In this document: one piece after another, positions 9,956-57,445 of the stretch | Layout: every line of letters starts with the position of its first letter | Position numbering within the stretch: position 1 is the first letter of the stretch | Assembly: GCA_027066325.1 (NCBI GenBank) | Contig: JAMONY010000006.1 | Span: forward strand, 1 to 57,593 | Direction of reading: 5' to 3' | DNA from: Helicobacteraceae bacterium | Lineage (GTDB): Bacteria; Campylobacterota; Campylobacteria; Campylobacterales; Sulfurimonadaceae | Length of the DNA: 57,593 bases | Translations under genes and position numbers: made by a program | Notes under the pieces: model-generated | What the model saw: only the letters and a program-made list of their open reading frames with translations | Database searches by the model: none | What the model was told of the DNA's origin: nothing

Positions 9956-11755
9956 ATGAGTCAAAAGCGCTCTATACTTAAAAGCCAGTTTGGTTTTGTT
10001 GAGTTTAGGGCATTTCAAGAAGATGCTATAGATGCCATACTCTCGGGTCGAGATCTGTTGATGGTGCTTCCCACTGGAGGTGGTAAGTCGCTCTCTTTTC
10101 AGCTACCAACTCTTATGATGAGTGGCACAACAGTAGTTATCTCACCGCTTTTGGCACTTATGCAAGATCAGGTAAAAGCCTTAAGAGCACGAGGTCTTAG
10201 TGCTACTATGATCTCCTCTATGCAGAGCTCTTTAGAAAATAAAGAGAGCATTTTAGATCTTTACAATGCGGATGTGAAGTTTTTATATCTATCACCAGAG
10301 CGATTAAACACCGACTCCATGCGCCATATCTTAAGTGAGATAGATATTAACTATTTTGTTATAGATGAGGCGCACTGTATTAGTGAGTGGGGGCATGAAT
10401 TTAGGGCTGATTATCGTGAGCTTAAAAGATTAAGAGAGTATTTTCCACTTCACAATATTGCAGCATTTACAGCCACAGCAACCCCAAATGTTCAAGACGA
10501 TATTATCAGCTCTTTAGATCTAAGAGAGCCATTGAGACTACAGGGCAAAGTTTATAGAGAAAATCTTAAAATTAGTGCCAAACAGCGAGTAGGAAACGGT
10601 TACTCTCAGCTTAAAGACTTTATAGATGATCATAGAGATCAAAGTGGCATAGTGTACGCACTATCGCGCAAAAGTGTTGAAGCGATATCGCAGTACTTAA
10701 ACTCTATTGGTTGTAAAACATCTGCTTATCATGCTGGCATGAGTGGCAATGAGCGTGAAGAGACTTTTGATGCATTTGTTAAAGATGAGATCAATATTAT
10801 AGTAGCAACCATAGCCTTTGGTATGGGTATCGACAAGAGCAATATCCGTTTTGTTGTGCACATGAGCCTGCCTAAAACCATAGAGAACTACTATCAAGAG
10901 ATAGGAAGAGCTGGTCGTGATACAGATAATGCCGATCTACTTCTGTTGTACAATAACTCAGACATCATGCAACATAGACGCTTTATTGATGAGGCTAACA
11001 ACCAAGAGCATAGAGAGTTGATGATATATAAACTTAATGCTATCTATCAATACGCTACAAGTCAGAGTTGTCGTCATAAACAGATTGCTAGCTACTTTGA
11101 TGATGTATTAGATGTGTGTCAGACTAATTGTGACAACTGTTTAGATCCTAACCCAGAGTCAGTACAGATTACAAAAGAGTCACAAATGCTTTTAAGTGCT
11201 ATCTATAAAACAGATCAAAGATTTGGTAAAACATATATAGTAGATCTTGTTCGTGGCTCAAAAGAGCAGAAAATCTTAAGTAATGCTCATGACTCTCTAT
11301 CGGTCTATGGTGTAGGCGCTCAGCGCAGTAAAAAAGAGCTCTTTGTTGTGCTAGATAGACTTTTTGAGATTGAAGCAATAGATACTAATGAGTTTGGAGG
11401 CATTATCATCATGACTATTGGTGTGGAGATTTTAAAATCCAAAAGGGATGTTTTTGTGCGAAAAGATAGATTGGAGTTTAAAAAGAGTAGATCAAAAGTC
11501 TCTATTTCAGAAGAGTTTAGATACGATAAAGATCTTTTTGAGTCCCTAAGAGAGTTGCGCTCTAGTGTGGCAAAAGATAACAAAGTTCCTCCATACATAG
11601 TCTTTAGCGACAAAACCTTAAAAGAGCTCTGTGCTAAAATCCCAATAACTAAAGAGCAGATGTTGCAGATTAATGGCATAGCAGAGATAAAATTTCAAAA
11701 ATACGCAGAACCATTTTTACAGTTATTAAAAAAAGTACAAAATAAGAGAGGGTAG
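9956..11755 (+). CDS. recQ: ATP-dependent DNA helicase RecQ
   Basis: 3'-5' helicase for recombination and fork repair. 599 residues with a superfamily 2 core: PTGGGKS (Walker A, near residue 43), [14 protein letters not shown] (motif II), TATATP (motif III) and GRAGRD (motif VI). Then the Zn-binding Cys cluster ([19 protein letters not shown], residues about 365-395), a winged-helix region and a C-terminal HRDC domain (about residues 520-595). Full length. Confidence 0.97.
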
Positions 11756-18669: not shown

Positions 18670-19830
18670 ATGGTAGATAAAATATATACCTTCTTTGAGC
18701 ATAAAAACTACAAAGAGATAATGGTACTATATCTCTATTTCATGATCATTTTTATACTAAGTATCACTCTAATCATAGATATCTTAAGGGACTACTATCT
18801 CATTACCAGCATCAAAGTTTTTATGTTGGTGGTGCTAGTGTGTGGTAGCTATTTCTATAGAAGATCAGTATCACCATATAAGGTTGAGACCTATATAACA
18901 CTACTTATTATCCTCTCTGAAATAACCCTAACAGTCATAGTCTTTAAGCAAGATTTTCTTGACTACTCTACAGTCTATCCTATGCTCATAACATTTGCAA
19001 TCTTCTACTTTTATAGATTAAACAAAATATGGATCCTAACTCTCTCTCACCACCTGTATTGGGTTGGTGTCTACTATGTTGGCTATCTAAGCTATCAAGA
19101 TCACCAGATACTTCATAACACTACTGCTATGGTTGGTATGGCGGTCTCTTATCTGTTTATGAATCTATTTGGGTCTGCTTATTATGTGTCGACTGATATC
19201 TATCAACGACAACTAGAGAGATCAAATGCCAAGCAAGAAGCTCTGCTAAAAGAGATTCATCACCGCATTAAAAATAGCCTCAATTTAGTATCTAGTATAC
19301 TTGGTCTTCAACAACAACAACTTACGGCAGATAGCAGTAGAGATTGTAAAAAAGCTCTTGAAGATAGCAGGCTTCGCATCTCAGCTATCTCTTTAGTGCA
19401 CAATACACTCTATAAAGAGGCAGACTTTGCTTCGATTAATTTTGCCTCTTATGTCGATAGTTTAAGTAGTAGAGTTTTGTCTGTTAGTCAAAGAGATATA
19501 GATCTTCAGATAGAGATAGATGATGTGTGGCTAGATTCAGATCGTACTTTGATGTTAGGCATCATTATCAATGAGCTACTTACAAACTCTTTGAAGTACG
19601 CTTTTGGTGATGAAGATAGTGGTAGTATTGTTATATCGTTTGCTGTTGAAGATGGTCTATATACACTTCTCTATCGTGACTACTCAGATAAGATAACCGA
19701 CACTAAAGTGCTATATAGTAGCAGGTCGTTAGGCATTCGTCTTGTCAAGATAGCAGTAGACGAGCTTGATGCAGAGCTCTTTGTAGAGTGTTGTGGCGGA
19801 CTTAGCTATAAGATCATCTTTAGAGTCTAA
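18670..19830 (+). CDS. Membrane sensor histidine kinase (HisKA_2/HWE type)
   Basis: 386 residues. About five or six N-terminal membrane segments (residues 18-175) with very short loops are followed by a HisKA_2 dimerisation domain with phospho-acceptor His in EIHHRIKNSLNLVSSILGLQ (near residue 200), then an HATPase with the N-box LGIIINELLTNSLKYAF and SLGIRLVK. No large periplasmic sensor domain, so it may sense membrane state or redox. It is tail to tail with a response regulator gene, overlapping by four bases. A close relative lies at 41121-42254. Confidence 0.92.
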   Translation: MVDKIYTFFEHKNYKEIMVLYLYFMIIFILSITLIIDILRDYYLITSIKVFMLVVLVCGSYFYRRSVSPYKVETYITLLIILSEITLTVIVFKQDFLDYSTVYPMLITFAIFYFYRLNKIWILTLSHHLYWVGVYYVGYLSYQDHQILHNTTAMVGMAVSYLFMNLFGSAYYVSTDIYQRQLERSNAKQEALLKEIHHRIKNSLNLVSSILGLQQQQLTADSSRDCKKALEDSRLRISAISLVHNTLYKEADFASINFASYVDSLSSRVLSVSQRDIDLQIEIDDVWLDSDRTLMLGIIINELLTNSLKYAFGDEDSGSIVISFAVEDGLYTLLYRDYSDKITDTKVLYSSRSLGIRLVKIAVDELDAELFVECCGGLSYKIIFRV

Positions 19831-40281: not shown

Positions 40282-41124
40282 ATGAATAGAACAATAGAGT
40301 TGGGTTGTATCAATACATTGAGATTGGATCGTTTTACGGCTCCTGGAGCGTACCTTATGAGTGAAGATGGCTCTGATGTATTGTTGCCAAATCAGTATAT
40401 ATTAGATGAGATGCAGCTAGATGATCTTCTTGATGTATTTATATATACAGATTCAGAAGATAGGCTTGTGGCAACTACAGCTAAGCCTAAAGCAATGCTT
40501 AATGAGTTTGGTATGTTTGAAGTTGTTGATGTGGCAAAGTTTGGTGCTTTTGTTGATTGGGGTCTTCCAAAAGATCTACTTGTGCCAAAAAATAGACAGA
40601 AGAAACCATTTAAGATTGGCGATAAGAGATTTTTAAGAGTTGTAAAAGATACTCAAAGTGAGCGACTTATTGGTGTGGAGAAGATCGGCTCATACCTAAG
40701 TACAAATCCTAAAGGATACCATCAAAATCGTGAAGTTAAAGCTCTTATCATAGCATCAACACCACTTGGATTTAAGGCTATTGTTGATGATAAGTTTGAA
40801 GGTATGTTTTTTGCCAATGAGATTTTTACCGAAGTGGTTGTTTCCCAGACATATAAGGCTTTTGTAAAACATGTAAGATCAGATGGGCATTTTGATCTAT
40901 CTATGCAGAAGATTGGTACAGTTGCAAGAGCTAGTGATGATACAGAGTCTATTATGCAGAAGTTAGAGCAAAATGGAGGCTCTCTTCCTTATAGCTCCAA
41001 AAGTGATGCCACTCTTATAAGCAAAAACTTTTTTATGAGTAAAAAAGCATTTAAAAGAGCTCTTGTTGTGTTGCAGCAAGAGGGTAAAATTATCTTAAAA
41101 GATAGTGGCATATATCGTGCCTAA
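40282..41124 (+). CDS. cvfB: CvfB-like S1-domain RNA-binding protein
   Basis: 280 residues. The family has several S1-like OB domains followed by a winged helix. Here: GCINTLRLDRFTAPGAYL at the N-terminus, an S1 repeat EFGMFEVVDVAKFGAFVDWGLPKDLLVP near residue 75, KDTQSERLIGVEKI, and the C-terminal winged helix FFMSKKAFKRALVVLQQEGKI. Post-transcriptional regulator in Gram-positives; role in Campylobacterota not established. The 3' end overlaps the convergent kinase gene by four bases. Confidence 0.88.
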   Translation: MNRTIELGCINTLRLDRFTAPGAYLMSEDGSDVLLPNQYILDEMQLDDLLDVFIYTDSEDRLVATTAKPKAMLNEFGMFEVVDVAKFGAFVDWGLPKDLLVPKNRQKKPFKIGDKRFLRVVKDTQSERLIGVEKIGSYLSTNPKGYHQNREVKALIIASTPLGFKAIVDDKFEGMFFANEIFTEVVVSQTYKAFVKHVRSDGHFDLSMQKIGTVARASDDTESIMQKLEQNGGSLPYSSKSDATLISKNFFMSKKAFKRALVVLQQEGKIILKDSGIYRA

Positions 41125-42254
41125 ACCCTAAAGTAGATATGATACTCAAACTTCTGCTCTCCCGTTTGCAGTCTTCCTTGTAGCTGCTGGACTGAGAGAT
41201 GTAGTAGTCTTAAGCCAAAGCCTTCTTTGCTATCTGTATTGATCTCTTCACCAGAGTCTTTGTAGTGTAGCAAGTATCTATCAGCATCTTTTGTCAGCTC
41301 TATAGTAATCTCTCCTCTATCTTTGGGGAATGCGTATTTTAGTGAGTTTGTTATGAGCTCGTTGAGTATGATACCTAGATGAATGATGGTGTTGCTGCCA
41401 AAATAGATATTGTCAATATTCAACACTATATCAATCTTTTTAGTAGGGGTTAAATTGACGATATGTGCTACAAGTTTTTCTGTATATGTGTGAAAATTCA
41501 CATTGCCTAAATCTTGACTCTGATAGAGCAGTTCGTGTACCAAAGAGATAGATCTTATGCGTAGAGTGTTTTGTTGAACAAAGTTCTGTATCTCCATGGA
41601 GCTAGACTCTGGAGCCTGTAGTCCTAAGATAGATGTCATAAGATTTAGATTGTTTTTTACACGGTGGTGAATCTCTTGAAGTAGGTATGTCTTCTCTTCA
41701 TTAGCTTGTGCTAAAAGTCTATTTGCCTCCTCAAGAGAGTCATAAAACTGATTGGTAGATTTATGATAGACTACACTAAAGCTCATGGCAAAAAGAAATA
41801 TGATGGATGTTACAGCAATAAATGCATCATTTTGAAGGTATGGATATAGCTCTTTATGGGCAAAACCATAGCCAAGCAGAAGTGCAAATAGAAGTAAAAA
41901 TAGCGCACCATGTCGCATAAATGTTCTAGTGTTTAAGACAATAGACGCTGAGAGTGGCACAAGGATGATCTGTATGATCTCAAGTCCATACCCTAGATGG
42001 TATATATAAAAAAATAGAAAAAATGAGATAAACCAAAATAGCAGAAGAGAAGAGAAGTTCACATCATGTCGTCTCTCATAATCAAACATAATCAATGCAA
42101 CAACAAGTATGGCAGCAACATCAAGCGCAGCAATTGTGTACTGCTCTACCCAGAACCTTAAGATGCCACCTATGGATGTGACAAAGAAAAATAGTGCAAA
42201 ATAGCCATAAAGAAATCTCTCTTTTGGCTTTTGGTAGTGTTTTATATTTAACAT
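41121..42254 (-). CDS. Membrane sensor histidine kinase (HisKA_2/HWE type)
   Basis: 377 residues with six or seven N-terminal membrane helices (residues about 13-165), then HisKA_2 with EIHHRVKNNLNLMTSILGLQ near residue 193 and an HATPase (LGIILNELITNSLKYAF, GFGLRLL). Very similar in layout to the kinase at 18670-19830, and evidently a paralogue. No response regulator adjoins it. It ends the motor/flavoprotein gene run, 42 bases after the Fe-S gene. Confidence 0.9.
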   Translation of the reverse strand: MLNIKHYQKPKERFLYGYFALFFFVTSIGGILRFWVEQYTIAALDVAAILVVALIMFDYERRHDVNFSSLLLFWFISFFLFFYIYHLGYGLEIIQIILVPLSASIVLNTRTFMRHGALFLLLFALLLGYGFAHKELYPYLQNDAFIAVTSIIFLFAMSFSVVYHKSTNQFYDSLEEANRLLAQANEEKTYLLQEIHHRVKNNLNLMTSILGLQAPESSSMEIQNFVQQNTLRIRSISLVHELLYQSQDLGNVNFHTYTEKLVAHIVNLTPTKKIDIVLNIDNIYFGSNTIIHLGIILNELITNSLKYAFPKDRGEITIELTKDADRYLLHYKDSGEEINTDSKEGFGLRLLHLSVQQLQGRLQTGEQKFEYHIYFRV

Positions 42255-42296
42255 ATTACTGTTTACCTTTTTAGATAAAAAATTATAGCAGAAGAC

Positions 42297-42986
42297 TTAA
42301 AACTCCAAGCCACCACCAAAACTACTTAAAAAATTTGGATCCACAAAGCCACTCATAGCACTCAAGTTTCTAAGAGCTACTACATCATCTTTGCTACTTA
42401 TATCTTGTGGGCAGGCCGCACTACACTCTCCACATAGAGTGCACTCATATATGCCATCAGTTTGCAGTAGAGATAAGATCGGTATCTCATCTTTACATCT
42501 AGCGTCTTTGAGATATCTCAGTGCTCTTGTAAATGTAAATGGTGCTATAAAGTTGTGATTGACCTCATATACAGGACATGCACTAAAGCATGCCATGCAG
42601 AGTATGCAGTTACTTTGAAGCTTTGTTGCTGCTTCACTCTCTTGCGTTAGCTCTATCTTGTCTGATTGTGGTATAAGCCAAGTCTGTACCTTCTGATTGA
42701 AGCTTAGTGGATAGTGTGAATCTACCACAAGGTCACGAATCACTTTGGTGTTGCGCAGAGGCTCTATGACCTCGCCACCAACCAGTCTATGTGCACATGC
42801 TAATCTCTCTTTAGAGTCTACTCTAACAGCACAACTTCCACAGACACTAGAGCCACAGCTAGAGTTATATGATAGAGTGCGATCTAGCTCACTCTTGATG
42901 TACTTTAGAGCCTGCAGTAGGGTTGGGTTTTCAAGAGGGATCTCATACTCTCTTAAATTATCTCTTTTTATATAAATAGTCATCAT
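42297..42986 (-). CDS. Sdh/Frd-like iron-sulfur subunit with two 4Fe-4S motifs
   Basis: 229 residues. A plant-type 2Fe-2S domain (SSCGSSVCGSCAVRVDSKE, then LACAH) is followed by two complete CxxCxxCxxxCP sets: CILCMACFSACPV near residue 131 and CTLCGECSAACPQ near residue 187. Classical SdhB/FrdB have a 3Fe-4S cluster with one Cys replaced; here that Cys is present, so two 4Fe-4S clusters are predicted. Adjacent to the flavoprotein with no gap. No membrane anchor gene follows. Confidence 0.88.
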   Translation of the reverse strand: MMTIYIKRDNLREYEIPLENPTLLQALKYIKSELDRTLSYNSSCGSSVCGSCAVRVDSKERLACAHRLVGGEVIEPLRNTKVIRDLVVDSHYPLSFNQKVQTWLIPQSDKIELTQESEAATKLQSNCILCMACFSACPVYEVNHNFIAPFTFTRALRYLKDARCKDEIPILSLLQTDGIYECTLCGECSAACPQDISSKDDVVALRNLSAMSGFVDPNFLSSFGGGLEF

Positions 42987-44492
42987 CTACTCCATATAGT
43001 GTGCGCCACAACTACTCTCTCTTTTTAGTGCAGCTTGTATGATCTGTCTGCTTAGATAAAGAGAGTTTAGAAACTCTAAAAACTCTACTAACTCCGTGTT
43101 ATAAGTCTTGTTAGTATCTAAAACACCCATCTGCTCTACTCTTTGACTCATCTGCTCTACTATTTTTAAAGCCTCTGTTAGCTTAGTTTTTGAGCGTTTT
43201 ATGCCAACATGAGAGTACATTGTGCTATTTAAAAGTCTTCTCTCATGGTAGAAGTTGATCGTAGCATTCTCATTAAAGAGGCTGTCTATAAACTCTTTAT
43301 TGTTTGTAAGATCTATGTCTGAAGTGATCTGGCTTATAGGTGCTTTGAGTGCATTTTCAGCAGCAATAGTTGCAAATACTACCAGCTCAAGCAGAGAGTT
43401 GCCACCAAGTCTATTTGCACCATGGACTTTATGGTTGGCGCACTCACCAGCTACAAACAGAGCTGTTATGGCTGTTTGTGTTTGGTTATCACACTGTATG
43501 CCTCCCATGCTATAGTGTGCTACTGGTCTAATGGGCATAGGTTTATCTACAGGATCTATATTTTCATATAGTTTTGATAGCTTGCGCTCTTGAGGCAGGT
43601 GTTTGTCTATAAAATCCTCTCCTAAGTGGGTTATGTCAAGGTAGACATCTTCACCATCAATCATCTTATCGTATATTGCTCTAGCTACCTTGTCGCGCGC
43701 ATCTAACTCATCCGTGAAGCGCTTCATGTTGGAGTCTAGCAGATACCCACCCTCTCCTCTAGCACTCTCCGATATAAGCACAGAGCTATTTTTTAGAGCT
43801 GTTGGGTGAAACTGTACAAACTCTAAGCCATCACTCATAGCTCCTGATCTTAGAGCCACTGCTATGCCATCACCTGTTGTATTAGATGCGTTTGTGCTAT
43901 ACTCTCCATATAGACCACAGTAGCCACCTGTAGCTAAGATAGTTGCATTAGAGTGAAACTGCTGTAGAGAAGATGTTCTGATATCTAGCGTAACTACACC
44001 TCTACAGATACCATCTTCAACAATCAAATCTATTAACATCTGTTCACATACAAACTCTACACCCACCCTAAGGCACTGGTCATATAGTGTATGTAGTATC
44101 TTTAGTCCCGTGTAGTCTTGCGCATAACAAGCTCTAGCAGCAGATGCTCCACCTAGCATTCTCTGTGCTATAGTATTGCTACTATCTCTACTAAATGGAA
44201 CACCAATCTTATCTAGCCACTCTATAGCTTCTGGTGCTGCTCTACACATAAGCTCTACCATTTTACTATCTGCTTTGCCAAGTGCTGATTTGAGTGTATC
44301 TTGTATGTGTAGCTCTACTGAATCTGCACTGTTTATGGCAGCATTGATGCCACCTTGCGCCATACATGTTTGTGAATTGGTTGGACGCTGCTTACACAAT
44401 ACGGTTACGCTAGCCCCAAGCTCTTTGGCTTTGATCGCAGCTACTAGACCAGCACCTCCAGCACCAACTATGATGATTTTGCTATTTTGCAT
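42987..44492 (-). CDS. Sdh/Frd/NadB-family flavoprotein subunit
   Basis: 501 residues, shorter than SdhA/FrdA (about 570-600). FAD-binding GAGGAGLVAAIKAKE at residue 10, CMAQGGINAA, QFHPTALKNSSVLISESARGEGG, RDKVARAI and RPVAHYSMGG match fumarate reductase/succinate dehydrogenase and L-aspartate oxidase. The His that binds FAD covalently in Sdh/Frd is Gln41 here (TNSQTC), so FAD is probably non-covalent, as in NadB. The C-terminal SRGAH is altered to SSCGAH and the protein ends soon after. With its Fe-S partner it probably reduces or oxidises a dicarboxylate; the exact substrate is not clear. Confidence 0.82.
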   Translation of the reverse strand: MQNSKIIIVGAGGAGLVAAIKAKELGASVTVLCKQRPTNSQTCMAQGGINAAINSADSVELHIQDTLKSALGKADSKMVELMCRAAPEAIEWLDKIGVPFSRDSSNTIAQRMLGGASAARACYAQDYTGLKILHTLYDQCLRVGVEFVCEQMLIDLIVEDGICRGVVTLDIRTSSLQQFHSNATILATGGYCGLYGEYSTNASNTTGDGIAVALRSGAMSDGLEFVQFHPTALKNSSVLISESARGEGGYLLDSNMKRFTDELDARDKVARAIYDKMIDGEDVYLDITHLGEDFIDKHLPQERKLSKLYENIDPVDKPMPIRPVAHYSMGGIQCDNQTQTAITALFVAGECANHKVHGANRLGGNSLLELVVFATIAAENALKAPISQITSDIDLTNNKEFIDSLFNENATINFYHERRLLNSTMYSHVGIKRSKTKLTEALKIVEQMSQRVEQMGVLDTNKTYNTELVEFLEFLNSLYLSRQIIQAALKRESSCGAHYME

Positions 44493-45561
44493 TGATATAC
44501 CCCATAAGCTCTCTTGTCGCCTCCATATTTTTAATCAAGAATCTTACCTCAATTCTCCTAGATGCATTTTTATCTTCTATGTTATCCAATACTATTGGTT
44601 CAGCGTATGATCTACCACTAGCACTAAGGTATTGTCTAAACAGCTTTTGATTTTGTGGATACTCTGTGTAGAGAAACTTCATCACGCTCATAGCACGCTC
44701 TTGTGATAGTGTTAAATTGTATAGATATGAGCCATCTGAATTGGTATGTCCTTCAATGATCACTCTATCTATCTGTTTTGCTATCTCTTTATCGTTAAGT
44801 AGCGTATCTATGTATCGCCCTAGTGTCTGCTTAAGAGCTTTTTGAGACTCTAGTTTTAAAGATGAGCTTCCCTGCTCAAATAGTATATTTGATGAGAGAC
44901 TAAGTGCACCAGTGTGTGGGTTGATGCTCATGTTGGAGCCTAGTTTCTGTTTGAGATGTTGGACTACTTTAACTTTTATGCCTGTTAAGTTTTTAATTTT
45001 GATACGAGTTAGATTTAGATCTTCTACTACACTTTGATACTCTGCATTTTTAAGAAGAAGTATCTTTTGAAGAGCTTGTAGCTCTTGATCTTTAAGTGCC
45101 AATATATGTTTATTTTGCTCTTGAGTGATAGTTAAGTTATCTTCTGAACTCTTTAGCGCCACTCTTGTAGAGTTTAGATCTAAGTTTAGCACCTGTGTGA
45201 TACTTAACATCTTATCTAGGCTCTGATCTTTTTCAAGAAGTAGATTTTTAAGTGTCTCTATCTCTTTTGTGCTTAGTTTGCTCTTTTGATGCTCTTTTGC
45301 TAGATCATCATTTAGTAACACAATAGTAGAGTTTAGCTCACCAACTTGACTCAAGGCTAGTTTAAGATTTTTACGAGTTTTTACAAGAGTGTCACTCTCT
45401 AGCTTCAGGTCTGTACGGATACTCTGTAGATCTTGACGCAAAAGTACACTTTTTACTACAATGGCACCTATAAGCAAGATAAACACAAAGAGTATACCCG
45501 CCATAAGATCAGCGTACGATATCCAAAAATTTTGCTCTTCAGAACGCTTGTCTCTAATCAC
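44482..45561 (-). CDS. MotB/OmpA-like protein with long coiled coil
   Basis: 359 residues. One N-terminal membrane helix bears the proton-path Asp (WISYADLMAGILFVFILL), then about 180 residues of coiled coil (residues 40-210), and a C-terminal OmpA/MotB peptidoglycan-binding domain (FEQGSSSLKLESQKAL, IIEGHTNSDGSYLYNLTLSQERA, RRIEVRF). Stator or motor subunit partner of the MotA-like gene 2 bases upstream. Longer than a flagellar MotB because of the coiled coil. Overlaps the flavoprotein start by 11 bases. Confidence 0.88.
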   Translation of the reverse strand: MIRDKRSEEQNFWISYADLMAGILFVFILLIGAIVVKSVLLRQDLQSIRTDLKLESDTLVKTRKNLKLALSQVGELNSTIVLLNDDLAKEHQKSKLSTKEIETLKNLLLEKDQSLDKMLSITQVLNLDLNSTRVALKSSEDNLTITQEQNKHILALKDQELQALQKILLLKNAEYQSVVEDLNLTRIKIKNLTGIKVKVVQHLKQKLGSNMSINPHTGALSLSSNILFEQGSSSLKLESQKALKQTLGRYIDTLLNDKEIAKQIDRVIIEGHTNSDGSYLYNLTLSQERAMSVMKFLYTEYPQNQKLFRQYLSASGRSYAEPIVLDNIEDKNASRRIEVRFLIKNMEATRELMGYINAK

Positions 45562-45563
45562 AA

Positions 45564-46850
45564 CTAGCTCTTATCTTTAAAGTCAGATATGATCTGTGTT
45601 GTCTGTTTATCTACTGCTTGTAGTGCCTCTTGAAGTTTTTTTAATACCTTCTCATCAAGAGAGTCTAGATGTCTACTTAAGTTCTCTCCTAGCCCATCTA
45701 GTTCTGATTTGAGTTTATCTATGTTGCCAACTACACCACTGTAGAGGTTTTCTATATTTTGAGCATTTAGGTTTTGAAGAGTTGTGTTGAGTGCCTCTAC
45801 ACTCACTGCTAACTCTTTAGCTACAGCTGCACTAGCGCCGTTTTGTACAGCAAGCTCTTGATGTTGTAAGTTTGTGGTTGTGCTACTTTGTGTTATGTTT
45901 TTTGTTAGCTCTTTTAGTGATGATATCATCTGTGCTAGTTCAGCTGTTAAATCTCTCTGTTGTAGTGCAAATAGATTGAGTTTCTGCCTGCTCTCATCTA
46001 GTATAATGCCTACCCCTTTAGCACTTGACAACTCCTGTTCTATAATCTGTTCAAACAGCTCCATTCTCTGCTCTAGAGTCTTGTTGAGAGAGTTGGTAAA
46101 CTCTGATGATGCGATATTGTCAAAAACATAGTTTAACCTCTCATAATTTTCTAAACTTTTTCTAAAGTAGACCTGTTCAACCTCCTCTTTTTGCCAGAAA
46201 AGATCTGCTGTGTCGTATTTGATAGTGTTGATGTCTAAGTCTAACTTACTAAGACCACTCTTCTCAAAAAAGATCCACCATATAGAGAGAAATATACCAT
46301 ATATAGAGATATAAAATGCTGTTCCAACACCACCTAAAAGAGTTGATATCTCATGCTCTAGCGCCTCAGAGCTCTGTGATGTAAAATCTGGCATAGACAT
46401 AGCAATGCTTATAAATGTACCTAAGATACCAAGAGTTGGAAAGATTCCAGATGCAACTGATGAGAAGTTGTCATTGCGCATTGTTAGAAGATGGTTTTGT
46501 AAAAAATCATCAATTGACGCAGATGCTTTTTGAATACCACCTATATCAAGAAGATTTCTGTTTATAAATTGCATCAAGTCTTGTTGGATATTTAGAAATC
46601 CAGATCTAAATTTACAGACCGCATAATAGGCATTGTGCTTCATAAAAAATAGATATATAACAAATATAGCACTAAGCATGACAATGCTATGTAGTTCAAC
46701 CCTAAAGTTCAATACATCTAAAAATCCCAAATAGGCAAAAATTAGTAAGATTAATGGTAGTGATACAAGCCATATAGAGCGCAAAATACAGCTTTTGCCC
46801 CTTTTTGTAATCTTGGCAGTAAGCTCTATGAATTTATCTTGAGTAACCAT
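45564..46850 (-). CDS. MotA/TolQ/ExbB-like proton channel with coiled-coil tail
   Basis: 428 residues. Two N-terminal helices (about 28-70), then a MotA_ExbB core (SVASGIFPTLGILGTFISIAMSM and STLLGGVGTAFYISIYGIFLSIWWIFFE, residues about 130-205), then about 220 residues of cytoplasmic coiled-coil tail. The architecture resembles the ZorA-type motor subunits of Zorya defence systems, but shorter, and no ZorC, ZorD or ZorE is adjacent. Could be a general envelope motor. Strong AAGGGGG ribosome site. Confidence 0.85.
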   Translation of the reverse strand: MVTQDKFIELTAKITKRGKSCILRSIWLVSLPLILLIFAYLGFLDVLNFRVELHSIVMLSAIFVIYLFFMKHNAYYAVCKFRSGFLNIQQDLMQFINRNLLDIGGIQKASASIDDFLQNHLLTMRNDNFSSVASGIFPTLGILGTFISIAMSMPDFTSQSSEALEHEISTLLGGVGTAFYISIYGIFLSIWWIFFEKSGLSKLDLDINTIKYDTADLFWQKEEVEQVYFRKSLENYERLNYVFDNIASSEFTNSLNKTLEQRMELFEQIIEQELSSAKGVGIILDESRQKLNLFALQQRDLTAELAQMISSLKELTKNITQSSTTTNLQHQELAVQNGASAAVAKELAVSVEALNTTLQNLNAQNIENLYSGVVGNIDKLKSELDGLGENLSRHLDSLDEKVLKKLQEALQAVDKQTTQIISDFKDKS

Positions 46851-52320: not shown

Positions 52321-53325
52321 ATGAGTAGTTTTGGGTATCCAAAATACGGAAAGAGGCAAAGAACTGGTAAATCTGGTGAGTCATTTGTAGATTATTTTGT
52401 ACACCAAATCTTGGGTTGGATATATCGCCCTGTCCACCAGGAATCAGATTTTGGGATTGATGGCTATATAGATATTGTAAATAACGGAAATGTAACTGGC
52501 CAAACTATTGGCGTTCAAATTAAGTGTGGTGATTCCTATTTTAATAAAAAAACAGATGGCCTAATTAGATATGAAGGAAAGAACAAGCATTTAAACTATT
52601 ATACAAATTCTAATACCCCTATTATTTTAGTTGTGCTGAATAGTGATTGCAGTGAAGGACAATGGGTTGAATTTAATCCTAGTATTACATCACCATGTAA
52701 GTATGGCTGGTGGATTGAAGTGCCAGATAATAATTCATTAGAGGTACAGGCAAAAAACAAATGGGAGCTTATTGCTGGCCCAGCACCTGATAATACAGAA
52801 CAACTTGAACAGTCTTGGAAAATAAATAATACCTTAGATGAATGTGACTTTGGTGTATACGTAATTCCAAAAGAAGATGTTCTATCTTTAGATTATTCTG
52901 GGATCAAAGATATAATAAATAGGCTGTCTCGAAATAAAAAAGCACTAATAAATAATAGGGGTACACTTGAGGTCTTAATTGATGGATTTAACACCGATCC
53001 AAGAGAGGCATATGAAATACCTGAAGTCAGAAACTGGTATTGCGAAAGTATAAATGTAGGCATTCCTTGGTTTTACTTCTTAGGTGAGCAAGCTAAAGGG
53101 ATGGGCTTAACAGTTCTTCTATTTTCATGTTGTGATATTAAAGTAAAATCCAAAGAATCTGGTAATACTTATGTTGAAATACAAGATCCTGACCAAGTAA
53201 TGGAGTGGCTAAATCATAATTTTAACAATCTAAATGAATTTACTGATGAAAAAGTTATTCCAGAAGAAATTAACAAAGAAATGTCAGAAAGAGCTTTTTC
53301 TATTGTCCGTGGAAAATTGCAATAA
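52321..53325 (+). pseudogene. DUF4365 (nuclease-fold) protein, interrupted by in-frame TAA
   Basis: 334 codons to a TAA at 53323, GAGGG ribosome site. The N-terminal DUF4365 domain is PD-(D/E)XK-like: TGKSGESFVDYFVHQ, QESDFGIDGYIDIV, then QTIGVQIKCGDSYF with the QxK element near residue 71 (residues about 10-160). The C-terminal part (residues 170-334) is not recognised. The same frame stays open for 48 more codons after the TAA and looks protein-like (SKWYQQVKKNNTKLEEILDQ), with no start codon of its own until near its end, so the gene appears truncated or read through. Defence-island type gene; DUF4365 proteins are known near restriction and other immunity genes. Confidence 0.75.
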
Positions 53326-53476: not shown

Positions 53477-53736
53477 CATATACAAAGTACAACAAAACGG
53501 AGAAAAAAATCCGTATCCCCAACCGACATTTTGGATGAGCAAAGAAACTTGCTATCATGAGAACTAGAAAAACGGTTGTGAGCAGATACAGATTTTTTTA
53601 CTCGACCGTTGTGTATTAAAGTCGAAACAGATATAATAAAAGGAACGATATGGGGAATACATATGGAGTGCGATTCGTGCTCGTTATAAAGTTAATTATA
53701 ATCTACCTATTTACCCATATTGTTGTATAGCATATG
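53477..53736 (+). ncRNA. Candidate retron msr-msd non-coding RNA
   Basis: A structured, non-coding stretch directly before the reverse transcriptase. Outer arms: CATAT (53477-53481) and TACAACAA (53488-53495) pair with TTGTTGTA (53720-53727) and ATATG (53732-53736), which would be a1/a2. Inside: ACGGA/TCCGT with an A-rich loop (53497-53514); GAT-g-AGCAA/TTGCTATC with loop AGAAAC (53534-53556); AACGGT/ACCGTT plus GAG/CTC enclosing a T7 run (53571-53610); ATATGGG/CCCATAT (53648-53720) enclosing the 7-pair hairpin GAGTGCG-ATT-CGTGCTC (53666-53682) and TTATAA/TTATAA. This fits msr then msd. The branching G and exact ends cannot be fixed by eye. Confidence 0.6.
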
Positions 53737-55473
53737 AATTTAAATCAATTAAACTCATTAGACATAATCTCAAAAAGTTTTAATATACCTTTAGAGTTTT
53801 TACAATCTATCTCCAAAAATCTAAAATCTAAAAAATATATTGAACTTTTTGATATACCTAAAAAAAACCAAAAACGCATAAAAAAATATAGAGAAGTCAT
53901 AAAAATCAATAGTCCATATAATCTATTTTATAAAGAATTACTACACATTATAGAACAAGAAATAGAACAGAATAAAACTTTTTTTATCAGTAATATAGCA
54001 CATGGATTTATCAAGGATAGAGGTGTATTGACAAATGCCAAACAGCATTTAAATAAAAAGTATTTATTTAAAATTGACATCAAAAACTATTTTAAATCAA
54101 TCACAAAAGAAAGTATAAAAAATGTTTTTTTAAAACTTGAATTTTCTAAAGATGGAGCAGAAATTTTTTCAAATTTATGTACATTTGAAGATATATTATA
54201 TGAAGGCTTTAATACCAGTCCCATATTGGCAAATTTGTATTGTTTAAATTTAGATTTAGAACTTAAAAGTTTAGCTGATGAATATAAAGTAGGAATAAGC
54301 AGATATAGTGATGATATAACTTTTTCATCTGATAACAATAGTTTTCCGCCACTAAATGCTATTAAAGATATTTTTGATAAATATAATTTTAAAATAAATG
54401 AAGAAAAAACTATAAGTTTAAAATATGGACAACCTCAATATGTCACAGGACTGAGTATATCAAATAACAAATATCCAAGAGTTCCCAAAAGAATGAAACG
54501 AAAAATTAGGCAAGAATTATACTATCTAAATAAATATCCAGAAAACTATTTTAATATTGAAGATGGTTATTCACAACTTAGAGCTATATATGGGAAGATT
54601 GTTTATATACTAGGAATTGAAAAAATATTAGGTAAAAAATACCAATCAGACTTTATAAGTATATTAGAAAAAAATAACATATATTTAGAAGATCTTTATA
54701 TGGATGCTTCACAAAAAAAGAGTGGTATATTTACATATCATTACATTGATGAAAGTGAAACACCTGATAAAAAAACATTGATTTTGTCACTTATTTCAAT
54801 AAATGGAGATTTTTTAAAAAATACTATTTCTGATAAATTAACTTTGTTACAAAATGACTTAGTTTCAGACCTAAGAAATGGACTGACTGATAATCAGAAA
54901 AGCAAACTTTTTCATTATTGTGAAGATAATATAATGGTGAAAGAAAGATATATACCAATATTGAGAGAGTTAAATATAGAAGCACAAATAATGTTTAAGT
55001 CTGAGCAAAGGTCAATGGATAAACTAGGTAAAGGAGTCTATCAAAAAAACTATTATGCCTTATTTAATAGTTTGATGAAAAATGTATTAAGAAGATACAA
55101 AAACAACACTAACATAATCACGGTTGAAGAAAATTCTAAAATTCCACTAAAAGAACTAGAAAAAATTGTTCAGATGAGAGATAGTTTTTTCCCAAATACA
55201 GTAGTAAAAAAAAGTGGGAAAGATGATATTTTATTGTCCATTCCAGACTATATTTTAGGTATAGTAAGAGATTGTATGAAAAAGAATTTTTCAGAAAGAT
55301 TAAGCAAATTAAAAAAAGAGCAAACACTAAAAGAAAATACAAAATTCTATGAAATTTCAGACAAAATAAGGTTAATTGCAGATTTAACTAATAATCAGTT
55401 TTTTACTCGACAAAATAATAATAAGATGGATTGCTTAAAATTAAACAGTTACATACACAACAAAACAGAGTAG
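53734..55473 (+). CDS. Retron-type reverse transcriptase with C-terminal DUF3800-like extension
   Basis: 579 residues. RT domain at about residues 60-310: KYLFKIDIKNYF (catalytic Asp), GFNTSPILANLYC, and ISRYSDDITFSS (YSDD near 191, a variant of YADD). Retron hallmarks are present: region X TNAKQHLNK (NAxxH, near 101) and region Y YVTGLS (near 236), followed by PRVPKRMKRKIRQELYYL. A further 260 residues begin YHYIDESE near 335 and later show KKSGKDDILLSIPDYILGIV; this resembles DUF3800 (RNase H-like fold, YIDES near its start and a C-terminal (A/P)D-(Y/L) motif), as in retrons whose effector is fused to the RT. No ribosome site is visible; the ATG lies in the a2 arm. Very AT-rich. Confidence 0.85.
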   Translation: MNLNQLNSLDIISKSFNIPLEFLQSISKNLKSKKYIELFDIPKKNQKRIKKYREVIKINSPYNLFYKELLHIIEQEIEQNKTFFISNIAHGFIKDRGVLTNAKQHLNKKYLFKIDIKNYFKSITKESIKNVFLKLEFSKDGAEIFSNLCTFEDILYEGFNTSPILANLYCLNLDLELKSLADEYKVGISRYSDDITFSSDNNSFPPLNAIKDIFDKYNFKINEEKTISLKYGQPQYVTGLSISNNKYPRVPKRMKRKIRQELYYLNKYPENYFNIEDGYSQLRAIYGKIVYILGIEKILGKKYQSDFISILEKNNIYLEDLYMDASQKKSGIFTYHYIDESETPDKKTLILSLISINGDFLKNTISDKLTLLQNDLVSDLRNGLTDNQKSKLFHYCEDNIMVKERYIPILRELNIEAQIMFKSEQRSMDKLGKGVYQKNYYALFNSLMKNVLRRYKNNTNIITVEENSKIPLKELEKIVQMRDSFFPNTVVKKSGKDDILLSIPDYILGIVRDCMKKNFSERLSKLKKEQTLKENTKFYEISDKIRLIADLTNNQFFTRQNNNKMDCLKLNSYIHNKTE

Positions 55474-55535: not shown

Positions 55536-56318
55536 ATGAGTATAATAACAATACAATATTTTAAAGAATATAGAAAAGAACTAGGTTTTACAAATCAAGG
55601 TGATGTAAAAAAGTTTTTTGCAGGAAAAGATATAACACCTACCGTAGATTACAATTATATTGAATTATTAAATACTAGACTTATTGAAATAATTAAAAAA
55701 ATAAATTCATTGGTTTCAAACGAAATTAATTTTAATAATATTGATGAATTTTGTACAAATAATGTAAATGTAGTTTTCGATAAACTAAAAGATAATAATA
55801 TTATTCAAAGATTAAATAATCAAGGAAGAAGACCTGAACAAGTATATTTTTCATGGATGAGAGGTTATATAATTTCAAATTATTTTTTAAAAGCACTAAG
55901 TAAAATATTTAAAGTAAGTCTTGACAATATTTCATTAATTGGAGATGATGATTTAGTAAATATCGAATCGTTCAAAAGAACACCTACAGCTGATTTAGAA
56001 ATTTTATTAAATAATGGTAATAAATTAAGAATTGAAGTTCAATCTGGTTTTGTTGGTGTTAATGATATTAAACAGCATAAAGTATTAGAAGCAAAAAGAA
56101 TTTTTCAAACAGAGGGTATATCATCTTTAGCAATTCATTTTGATCTATTTAATGGTCAGGTAGCATTTATAAAGCTAGATGAAATAGAAGATGATAGTGT
56201 AAATTGGATTACACGACAACAGATGGAAGGTCAAACTGTTTTTAATATAGACCAAAATTATTTTACATGGAAACTAACTGAAATACCTCCATTATTAGAA
56301 GATATATTCCAGAGTTAA
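55536..56318 (+). CDS. Putative type II restriction endonuclease
   Basis: 260 residues, soluble. Likely PD-(D/E)XK core PTADLEILLNNGNKLRIEVQSG (near residue 150), with Asp, then Glu-Val-Gln in place of ExK. The call rests mainly on position: its stop lies 2 bases before the C5-methyltransferase, in the same direction, with the same AT-rich composition. I cannot name its recognition site. AAGGA 8 bases before the ATG. Intact. Confidence 0.75.
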   Translation: MSIITIQYFKEYRKELGFTNQGDVKKFFAGKDITPTVDYNYIELLNTRLIEIIKKINSLVSNEINFNNIDEFCTNNVNVVFDKLKDNNIIQRLNNQGRRPEQVYFSWMRGYIISNYFLKALSKIFKVSLDNISLIGDDDLVNIESFKRTPTADLEILLNNGNKLRIEVQSGFVGVNDIKQHKVLEAKRIFQTEGISSLAIHFDLFNGQVAFIKLDEIEDDSVNWITRQQMEGQTVFNIDQNYFTWKLTEIPPLLEDIFQS

Positions 56319-56320
56319 AT

Positions 56321-57445
56321 ATGATAAGTCAGAAATTTAAAGCTTTAGATTTATTTGCAGGAGTGGGAGGTCTTAGTTATGGATTTGCCCATGATAAAAA
56401 TTTTGAAATTATAGCAGCCAATGAAATTTTATCAGATATGGCACAAGCATATTCTCTAAATCATCCAACTGTTAAAATGTATAATTGTGATATTAAAGAT
56501 TTTGGTATTAAAAATCTTTCAGAAGACTTACAAATTAAAAAAGGGGATATCGATTTAATTGTTGGTGGTCCACCATGTCAAGCATTTTCAACAGTAGGAA
56601 AAAGATTAATTGATGATCCAAGAGGTCAACTTTTTCAAGAATACTATAGAGTTTTAGAAGAATTAAATCCTAAGGTATTTTTATTTGAAAATGTTAAAGG
56701 TCTTTTATCGATGCAAAAAGGTGAATTACTAAAAACAATATTATCACTTTTTAAATCATTAGGATATAAAGTTAAATATGATATTTTAAATTCAGCAGAT
56801 TATGGAGTACCACAAATTAGAGAAAGGGTTATAATTATTGGCACAAAGTTAAATCAAGATTTTAAATATCCAGAACCAACACATTCAAATGAAAATAATA
56901 ATATTTTTAATCAAAATTTAAAACCATATTTGTCATTATCGGAAGCTATTAGTGATTTACCTTTTATCAAAAGTAATGAAGAAAGTTTTGAATATAACAG
57001 TGAACCACAAAATAATTTTCAAAAATTAATGAGATTTAATGCATCAAAAAAATTAATGGATCATAATGCACCAAAAAATAATGATAAGTTGGTAAAACTT
57101 ATGGAATGTCTACCTGATGGTGGTACACCAGCAGATGTTCCTGAAGAATTACGACCAAAAAGTGGATTTAAAAATACATATTGTAGATTATGGTGGGAAA
57201 GACCTGCTCCAACAATTACAAGAAATTTAAGTACACCATCATCTTCAAGATGTATTCATCCTAAAGCACCAAGACCTTTAACTACAAGAGAAGGGGCAAG
57301 AATACAATGTTTTCCAGATGATTACATTTTTTATGGGTCAAGAAGTTCTAAAAATTTACAAATTGGTAATGCTGTTCCTACTTTTTTATCAATTGCTTTG
57401 AAAGAATCAATTAAACGGCATTTAGAAACAGACAACAAAACCTAG
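56321..57445 (+). CDS. DNA (cytosine-5-)-methyltransferase
   Basis: 374 residues, full length. Motif I DLFAGVGGLSYGF, motif IV GGPPCQAFSTVGKR with the catalytic Cys (near residue 87), motif VI FLFENVKGL, motif VIII QIRERVIIIG, variable target-recognition region (about residues 190-300), motif IX RPLTTREGARIQCFPDDY and motif X QIGNAVP. Modification partner of the upstream endonuclease; nuclease-before-methylase order with almost no spacer. Target sequence not readable by eye. Confidence 0.95.
   Translation: MISQKFKALDLFAGVGGLSYGFAHDKNFEIIAANEILSDMAQAYSLNHPTVKMYNCDIKDFGIKNLSEDLQIKKGDIDLIVGGPPCQAFSTVGKRLIDDPRGQLFQEYYRVLEELNPKVFLFENVKGLLSMQKGELLKTILSLFKSLGYKVKYDILNSADYGVPQIRERVIIIGTKLNQDFKYPEPTHSNENNNIFNQNLKPYLSLSEAISDLPFIKSNEESFEYNSEPQNNFQKLMRFNASKKLMDHNAPKNNDKLVKLMECLPDGGTPADVPEELRPKSGFKNTYCRLWWERPAPTITRNLSTPSSSRCIHPKAPRPLTTREGARIQCFPDDYIFYGSRSSKNLQIGNAVPTFLSIALKESIKRHLETDNKT

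What the first reader, a model, noticed from the sequence alone, without database searches (positions are those of the whole stretch)
41121..46850. Proton-channel motor genes in one run with an anchorless Sdh-like enzyme and a kinase
The MotA/TolQ-like and MotB/OmpA-like genes overlap or abut an Sdh/Frd-like flavoprotein and its Fe-S subunit, followed by a histidine kinase, all on one strand with small gaps. The motor pair has long coiled coils similar in plan to Zorya ZorA/ZorB, but no Zorya effectors adjoin. I know of no described system joining a MotAB-type motor with a soluble dicarboxylate oxidoreductase; it might be a redox-linked motor or simple operon sharing.
Basis: partly seen in the sequence, partly recalled or inferred. 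Interest (0 to 1): 0.55.

Follow-up and report, generated by a model that had tools for sequence, protein, structure and literature searches.

The report
Zorya-like motor beside unrelated fumarate reductase
In one bacterium, a rotary-motor gene pair found in many Campylobacter relatives happens to sit next to a known type of soluble fumarate reductase and a sensor kinase; the neighbours do not travel together in relatives, but the motor pair itself looks like an unstudied machine with an unusual, precisely stepped shaft.

Summary
In detail: five minus-strand genes (46850 to 41121) run with spacings of 2, -11, 0 and 42 bp: ZorA-like and ZorB-like motor genes, an SdhA/FrdA-like flavoprotein, its Fe-S partner, a histidine kinase. 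The proposed joint system is not supported. ZorB follows ZorA in 116 of 120 loci; the other four end at contig edges. The flavoprotein is in none of the 120, 100 of which hold 3.5 kb or more downstream. In four same-genus genomes the Fe-S gene lies 34-53 kb away. The flavoprotein pair has its own neighbourhood and matches the two-subunit cytoplasmic fumarate reductase already proposed for the reductive TCA cycle. The kinase is not conserved. What remains interesting is the motor pair: Zorya-like in sequence and fold, strong in about half of 397 class genomes, no Zorya effector found beside it here, and separate from true Zorya II where both occur. Its periplasmic coil varies in length almost only by whole heptads (98 of 107 unique sequences in one class modulo 7), which suggests a rigid, phase-locked shaft.

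The parts
45564..46850 (-). ZorA-like (MotA/TolQ/ExbB superfamily) A subunit, 428 aa: N-terminal membrane helices, cytoplasmic domain with a small beta hairpin (res. 100-109), two further membrane helices (my reading of sequence and model), then about 230 residues of helical tail
   Evidence: PF01618 29 bits; PADLOC ZorA1 2.7e-14; NCBIfam ZorA models below cut-off; AlphaFold2 model pLDDT 82.8, pTM 0.55; Foldseek's six hits under E 0.001 are ZorA structures
44482..45561 (-). ZorB-like (MotB/OmpA) B subunit, 359 aa: TM helix with invariant Asp18, long periplasmic coil, OmpA-type peptidoglycan-binding domain
   Evidence: PF00691 45 bits; PADLOC ZorB1 8e-54; D18 in 32 of 32; AlphaFold2 pLDDT 84.9, pTM 0.50; Foldseek's five best hits are ZorB
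42987..44492 (-). SdhA/FrdA-like flavoprotein, 501 aa, Gln at the position of the covalent-FAD His
   Evidence: PF00890 327 bits, PF02910; TIGR01812 493 bits against cut-off 567; alignment
42297..42986 (-). SdhB/FrdB-like Fe-S subunit, 229 aa, [2Fe-2S] domain plus two CxxCxxCxxxCP motifs
   Evidence: TIGR00384 160 bits; motifs read directly in the translation; same in 20 of 20 relatives
41121..42254 (-). histidine kinase (HisKA_2) with a hydrophobic N-terminal half, 377 aa
   Evidence: PF07568 80 bits
46851..46930 (.). 80-bp divergent intergenic stretch between zorA-like and the addB-like gene; presumed to hold the promoter of the run
   Evidence: position only; promoter-like sites in the region are not more frequent than in shuffles (15 found, 21 expected)

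Best explanation
Three independent units have come to share one compact minus-strand run in this probable Sulfurimonadaceae genome. (1) zorA-like/zorB-like: a non-flagellar, non-Zorya ion-driven motor of the 5:2 superfamily, kept in many Campylobacterota. Shown: the pair is conserved, the membrane Asp and OmpA-type peptidoglycan-binding residues are invariant in the sample aligned, the predicted fold is Zorya-like, and the periplasmic coil changes length in whole heptads. Inferred: ion flow past Asp18 turns a ZorA-like pentamer around a ZorB-like dimer that is pinned to peptidoglycan through a stiff, phase-locked coil, and the long cytoplasmic tail passes the motion or a signal to an unidentified partner. 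(2) sdhAB: a two-subunit soluble fumarate reductase used mainly in the reductive TCA cycle (inferred from distribution, sequence features and print). (3) An orphan sensor kinase. Co-transcription is likely here; functional coupling is not.
For: zorB follows zorA directly in 40 of 40 fetched loci and 76 of 80 named loci, 116 of 120 together; the four misses are matches that run to a contig end. sdhA is in 0 of 120 loci, all open frames checked (maps). sdhA and sdhB abut in 18 of 20 fetched loci of their own; in family f1 a purT-like gene is near in 7 of 10 and a YajQ-like gene in 8 of 10 (gene names recalled from the sequences). In G191, G288, G305, G360 sdhB is 35, 39, 34 and 53 kb from zorA. 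Of 52 f1 genomes 51 have this SdhB type but only 13 a strong motor A subunit (hand count). This SdhB type is in 99 of 119 ATP-citrate-lyase genomes and 25 of 278 others. The own genome also holds a separate SdhABE set. Kinase: 27 of 150 genomes, own included, have any match. Motor: invariant residues, heptad steps, PDB and fold matches.
Against: The 11-nt zorB/sdhA overlap could give translational coupling, compatible with a recent, selected link in this one species. The closest A subunits found are about 47-51% identical over most of the length (one partial named copy reaches 61%), so conservation among very near relatives is untested. Ion, rotation and output of the motor are not shown. The 120 loci hold some genomes twice (e.g. 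L175 and G165), and 20 hold less than 3.5 kb downstream. The ACL link is confounded by family membership and imperfect: 20 ACL genomes lack the type at the threshold used (E 8.1e-48) and 25 others have it. A review (PMC6682613, passages) names menaquinone-linked FrdABC as the enzyme that works in both TCA directions in this phylum.
Confidence: 0.85

Rival explanations
1. Redox-linked motor: the SdhA/B enzyme docks on the ZorA-like tail, so that fumarate/succinate state gates the motor or the motor regulates the enzyme.
For: One strand, 11-nt overlap; no terminator-like site on the minus strand between zorA and the kinase gene.
Against: sdhA in 0 of 120 motor loci; the motor is strong in f3 Campylobacter-type genomes whose best SdhB match is weak (E 1e-14 to 6e-33); 51 of 52 f1 genomes have the enzyme type but only 13 the motor (hand count).
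Confidence: 0.03
2. The motor pair is a Zorya anti-phage system, or a decayed one, with effectors elsewhere.
For: PADLOC ZorB1 E 8e-54 and ZorA1 3e-14; Zorya-type beta hairpin in the model (trait described in PMC12505986, passages); best PDB hits are ZorA/ZorB. PMC11890865 (passages) finds Zorya II abundant in Campylobacter.
Against: No effector adjoins here. One ZorC model: 0 of 397 genomes (no control rang, so weak evidence); another ZorC model: 0 in the own genome (likewise); one ZorE model: 7 of 240, not in the own genome. None of 1100 neighbour proteins in 120 motor loci resembles the four ZorE proteins read. In those four ZorE loci a different short ZorB sits directly before ZorE. G093 has the core A subunit and ZorE on different contigs, and G132 has them about 514 kb apart on one contig (the G132 ZorE locus was not read). 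Scores are far below the NCBIfam ZorA/ZorB cut-offs. Fixed synteny in Campylobacter-type genomes is unlike a mobile defence island. ZorD, ZorF and ZorG were not searched.
Confidence: 0.12
3. It is an auxiliary flagellar stator (MotAB paralogue).
For: Same superfamily; MotB-type TM motif YADLM.
Against: MotB-type models score 32 bits or less against cut-offs of 250-300; the A model shows a hairpin and a long C-terminal helical tail; Foldseek ranks ZorA first and the first flagellar MotA at 25.
Confidence: 0.05
4. The flavoprotein pair is a succinate dehydrogenase or L-aspartate-oxidase-like enzyme rather than a fumarate reductase.
For: 501 aa is close to NadB length; the NadB model gives 374 bits against a cut-off of 453; the covalent-FAD His is missing, as in the NadB-like protein on C80.
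Against: The SdhA/FrdA model scores higher, 493 bits; a separate NadB-like protein is on C80 (NadB by length and PF00890 only, not scanned with NadB models); an SdhB-like partner abuts in 18 of 20 loci.
Confidence: 0.15

Closest known systems
Zorya ZorAB motor (type I: PDB 8qyd, 8vvn; type II of Sulfuricurvum kujiense: PDB 8vvi)
   Same: A-B gene order, MotA/ExbB-type A subunit with long cytoplasmic tail, B subunit with TM Asp and OmpA-type peptidoglycan-binding domain
   Different: No effector gene beside it here; B subunit 359 aa with a long heptad-stepped coil, against 233-236 aa in the four ZorE loci read and 246-282 in solved chains; only distantly similar to the type II ZorA of the probable same genus (29% over 93 columns)
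PRK09039-type peptidoglycan-binding protein (NCBIfam)
   Same: MotB-like N-terminus, coil, OmpA domain; 50 bits over 3-341
   Different: Below the 305-bit cut-off; partner gene not compared here
Two-subunit cytoplasmic FrdAB of autotrophic Epsilonproteobacteria (proposed by Sievert et al. 2008, as cited in PMC4674564)
   Same: FrdA plus FrdB without an anchor gene, beside a three-subunit enzyme elsewhere in the genome, in an ATP-citrate-lyase organism
   Different: No difference noticed; here it merely sits beside the motor pair. The 2008 paper itself was not read
SdhABE / MfrABE (CCG-subunit type)
   Same: Related flavoprotein and Fe-S subunits; the own SdhABE Fe-S subunit also has CxxCxxCxxxCP-type motifs (read)
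   Different: No CCG subunit beside the window pair; a full SdhABE set is elsewhere in the genome (C11)

Membership tests
Zorya defence system | ZorA + ZorB adjacent | tested here: met
Zorya defence system | effector genes (ZorC+ZorD, ZorE, or ZorF+ZorG) in the same locus | tested here: not met
   none among 7 proteins scanned; in the own genome two ZorC models and one ZorE model found nothing (for ZorC no control rang); ZorD, ZorF, ZorG not searched genome-wide
Zorya defence system | NCBIfam ZorA/ZorB curated cut-offs | tested here: not met
   best: ZorB1 66 of 400 bits; ZorA 40 of 250 and 28 of 100 bits
Zorya defence system | beta structure in the A-subunit cytoplasmic domain | tested here: met
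   strands 100-103 and 106-109 in the predicted model; trait from PMC12505986 (passages)
Zorya defence system | protects against phage | not testable with these tools
   needs an experiment
5:2 ion-driven motors (MotAB/ExbBD/TolQR/ZorAB superfamily) | MotA/ExbB domain in A, TM Asp in B | tested here: met
   PF01618; D18 32 of 32
5:2 ion-driven motors (MotAB/ExbBD/TolQR/ZorAB superfamily) | 5:2 assembly and rotation | not testable with these tools
   only monomers were modelled
flagellar MotAB | MotA/MotB equivalog scores | tested here: not met
two-subunit soluble fumarate reductase (rTCA FrdAB) | FrdA + FrdB, no anchor gene adjacent | tested here: met
   window neighbours. In relatives: no CCG-type protein by motif in 20 of 20 loci, while the own SdhE is found as positive control; four loci read in full; FrdC-type anchors were not searched with a model
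two-subunit soluble fumarate reductase (rTCA FrdAB) | occurs in rTCA organisms | tested here: met
   ATP-citrate lyase in own genome; 99 of 119 against 25 of 278, so not exclusive
two-subunit soluble fumarate reductase (rTCA FrdAB) | reduces fumarate | not testable with these tools
   needs an enzyme assay

The most novel reading that the evidence does not exclude
Campylobacterota carry a housekeeping rotary motor that is neither flagellar, Ton/Tol nor Zorya: a ZorAB-like unit without defence effectors, whose peptidoglycan anchor is joined to the membrane by a rigid coiled-coil shaft that has been lengthened and shortened over evolution almost only in heptad (or stutter) steps, so that rotational phase between membrane and wall is kept. 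Its output is unknown, and true Zorya systems may be a defensive offshoot of such housekeeping motors.
Probability: 0.5. Interest if true: 0.65.

Novelty: new variant of a known kind. Interest (0 to 1): 0.4.

Why it matters
The redox-motor idea can be dropped, which saves effort. The motor pair itself looks like a conserved, unstudied ion-driven machine in a group that includes Campylobacter, and its heptad-stepped shaft is a natural experiment on how stiffness and phase between membrane and wall matter in this motor superfamily. It also bears on where Zorya defence motors came from.

Tried and rejected
Rejected: a joint redox-motor system (sdhA in 0 of 120 motor loci). Rejected: the kinase as a motor partner (two paralogues elsewhere in the own genome, one at 18670-19830 of this window; only L050 and L205 of 120 motor loci hold a kinase resembling it, about 30% identical, some 3.6 kb upstream of zorA on the other strand). 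Rejected: a hidden conserved third gene; clustering of neighbours in 120 loci found only clade-bound synteny, the widest clusters apart from zorB spanning 22 loci. One of the 22-locus clusters has mixed positions and looks like a sensor-protein family, i.e. paralogy (my reading of its sequence). The ZorA tail was tested for heptad steps: 11 of 44 distinct lengths in the best class, 45 of 110 unique sequences, no comparable signal. My first parsimony count (41 of 50 changes) broke ties in favour of multiples of seven; redone with random ties it gives a mean of 38.6 of 50, lowest run 68%, jitter control mean 15%, highest 36%. My first length measure dropped 12 of 119 sequences by a narrow pattern; a wider one measured 116 of 119, the three misses being short sequences of 150-263 aa; the tree tests still rest on the first 98. 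The ORF map lost motor genes in a few loci to longer overlapping frames (zorA in L038 and L039, zorB in L036 and L038); one search recovers both genes in all 40 loci, and one search checks every open frame for sdhA/sdhB. Promoter and terminator scans gave nothing above shuffles. Papers: Cj0598/Cj0599, which I recall as the C. jejuni copies, appear in 2 papers, seen as passages only; one lists Cj0598 as function unknown, the other names Cj0599 as 'major outer membrane protein' in a cell extract. Searches: ZorA+ZorB+MotA+TolQ (0 papers); three or more of Zorya, ZorA, MotA, ExbB (12); Zorya+Campylobacter+ZorA (3); proton-channel+OmpA family+C. jejuni+transposon (0); ZorAB+homologs+Sulfuricurvum (1); four or more of heptad, peptidoglycan-binding, MotB, coiled coil, stator (9, listing only). 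In these listings and in the passages of PMC12505986 and PMC11890865 that I saw I met no description of this pair or of its length steps; most listed papers were not opened.
Full report
What is there. Junctions: 2 bp between zorA and zorB, an 11-nt overlap of the zorB end with the sdhA start, 0 bp between sdhA and sdhB, 42 bp before the kinase. Upstream, an 80-bp gap separates zorA from a divergent AddB-like gene; downstream, the kinase ends against a convergent S1/CvfB-like gene. The window is dense: 26 of 42 same-strand gaps are 15 bp or shorter, so tight packing is the rule.

Where it comes from. The own genome is 1.69 Mb in 82 contigs and carries ATP-citrate lyase. One same-genus genome has a contig of the same length (4376) as the named record 'Sulfuricurvum sp. 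bin20014', so the genus is probably Sulfuricurvum (inference; Sulfurimonadaceae, Campylobacterota).

Neighbourhood test. The motor A subunit has a match in 232 of 397 class genomes at E <= 1e-3; 193 of them are strong (E 1.1e-34 or better; hand count). In 40 loci taken from these genomes both genes were found and abut on the same strand. A scan of named genomes kept the best 80 of 286 confirmed stretches; zorB follows in 76, and the four others (L168, L169, L211, L222) are matches that run to a contig end. The joint count is 116 of 120. Some genomes occur in both sets, so the loci are not all independent. No open frame in any of the 120 resembles sdhA; one locus (L167) has an SdhABE-type Fe-S gene (29% identical) about 2 kb past zorB with its CCG partner. 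Of the 120, 100 hold 3.5 kb or more downstream of zorA. Two further same-genus loci, L240 and L241, also have zorA-zorB without sdhA (L241 is only 4.4 kb). In four same-genus genomes sdhB lies 34-53 kb from zorA.

The enzyme. sdhA and sdhB form their own pair: they abut in 18 of 20 fetched loci; L126 lacks a recognised sdhA, and in L121 several genes separate the two. Of ten f1 loci, seven have a purT-like gene and eight a YajQ-like gene nearby (names from memory of the sequences). No CCG-type protein was found by motif in the 20 loci, while the same motif finds the own genome's SdhE; FrdC-type anchors were not searched with a model. The His that is taken to carry FAD covalently in the own SdhABE flavoprotein is Gln in the window protein and in 16 of 19 relatives; the other three have His, Gly and Ala. 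Both CxxCxxCxxxCP motifs are present in 20 of 20 Fe-S subunits. From recalled biochemistry, non-covalent FAD and a four-Cys distal cluster fit a fumarate-reducing enzyme fed by a low-potential donor. This SdhB type (by similarity only, E <= 8.1e-48) is in 99 of 119 ATP-citrate-lyase genomes and in 25 of 278 others (six weak PF16114 matches were counted as negative); the association is confounded by family. That a two-subunit, cytoplasmic fumarate reductase serves the reductive TCA cycle in this group is already in print: PMC4674564 (passages) reports it and credits Sievert et al. 2008, which I did not read. A review (PMC6682613, passages) instead names FrdABC for both directions.

The kinase. 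27 of 150 class genomes, own included, have any match; the best outside the own genome is E 2e-35. Only two of 120 motor loci hold a kinase resembling it, about 30% identical and not adjacent. It is best seen as an orphan kinase.

The motor pair. ZorB-like: Y16-A-D-L-M-A-G22 is invariant in 32 of 32 aligned sequences, Asp18 included; so are T273, G277, N282, S286, Q287, R289, A290 and S334-R335-R336 of the peptidoglycan-binding domain. ZorA-like: G141-I-L-G-T-F146 is invariant and the GVGTAFYxSIYGI stretch nearly so in 32. The A model (pLDDT 82.8, pTM 0.55, monomer) shows a beta hairpin in the cytoplasmic domain and a helical tail; PMC12505986 (passages) describes added beta structure as the mark of Zorya-type A subunits. 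Foldseek's six hits below E 0.001 are all ZorA structures, though TM-scores are low (0.25-0.32 by query). The B model's five best hits are ZorB. The solved type II ZorA of Sulfuricurvum kujiense (8vvi) is only distantly similar, its residue 21 matching residue 120 or 121 here, so it is a different system.

Is it Zorya? Pair and fold fit; effectors do not. One ZorC model matched in none of 397 genomes and a second in none of one, but no control rang, so this is weak; ZorE matched in 7 of 240, not here. None of 1100 neighbour proteins of the motor pair resembles the ZorE proteins read. The four ZorE loci that I read, of seven, have their own short ZorB directly before ZorE. G093 also has the core A subunit on another contig, and G132 has it about 514 kb from its ZorE match on one contig. 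In 22 loci, mostly Campylobacter, a class II aldolase-like gene precedes the pair at position -1 (19) or -2 (3), usually with a PEB4-like gene before it (names recalled). I therefore file the pair as Zorya-like in build but not as a Zorya system.

The heptad shaft. The distance from the TM motif to the start of the OmpA domain ranges from 101 to 332 residues. Of 119 sequences 116 were measurable and 107 of those unique; 98 fall in one class modulo 7, 7 in the class four residues on (a coiled-coil stutter; the window copy, 210, is one), 2 elsewhere; 18 of 26 distinct lengths are in the main class (binomial p 3e-10 before a factor of 7 for choosing the class). In the first, narrower measure (98 unique) the counts were 88, 7 and 3, other periods from 3 to 11 showed nothing, and the spacing inside the OmpA domain was 43 in 95 of 98. 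On a tree of the OmpA domain of those 98, a mean of 38.6 of 50 length changes are multiples of seven with random tie-breaking, against 15% in a jitter control. The window model has a helix break at 92-97, which would fit its stutter class. Inference: the coil is a continuous parallel dimer whose phase is under selection, i.e. a stiff shaft between membrane and wall. Heptad-stepped indels are also what long coiled coils in general may show (recalled), so the step size speaks for a continuous coil first and for a torque shaft only by inference.

Verdict. The finding as a joint system is ordinary gene neighbourhood. The motor pair deserves follow-up on its own.

Noticed in passing
44482-45561 and its relatives in L034-L073, L160-L241: Periplasmic coil length of the ZorB-like subunit changes almost only by multiples of seven residues (98 of 107 unique sequences in one class).
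   Followed up: yes
53734-55473 (+): Reverse transcriptase, best PADLOC match RT-DUF3800 type VII-A1 (E 7e-81); a candidate anti-phage retron/RT system.
   Followed up: partly
52321-53325 (+), 55536-56318 (+), 56321-57445 (+): DUF4365/Crr6-like protein with PADLOC matches to restriction-type N-terminal domains, an unknown protein, and a C5 cytosine methyltransferase beside the reverse transcriptase: a possible defence cluster.
   Followed up: partly
18670-19830 (+): Second HisKA_2 histidine kinase, 31% identical to the one in the finding; a third copy (37%) is on contig C11.
   Followed up: no
L244-L247: Zorya II loci (short ZorB directly before ZorE) in other Campylobacterota, distinct from the core pair; G093 has both.
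   Followed up: partly
L062: G361 copy of the pair is odd: 592-aa A subunit and 251-aa B subunit, presumably the shortest coil in the set (101 residues, still in the main heptad class).
   Followed up: no
9956-11755 (+): RecQ-type helicase; a homologue lies in 11 of 80 named motor loci, those displayed being Poseidonibacter, Arcobacter, Aliarcobacter and an uncultured one, but about 34 kb away here.
   Followed up: no
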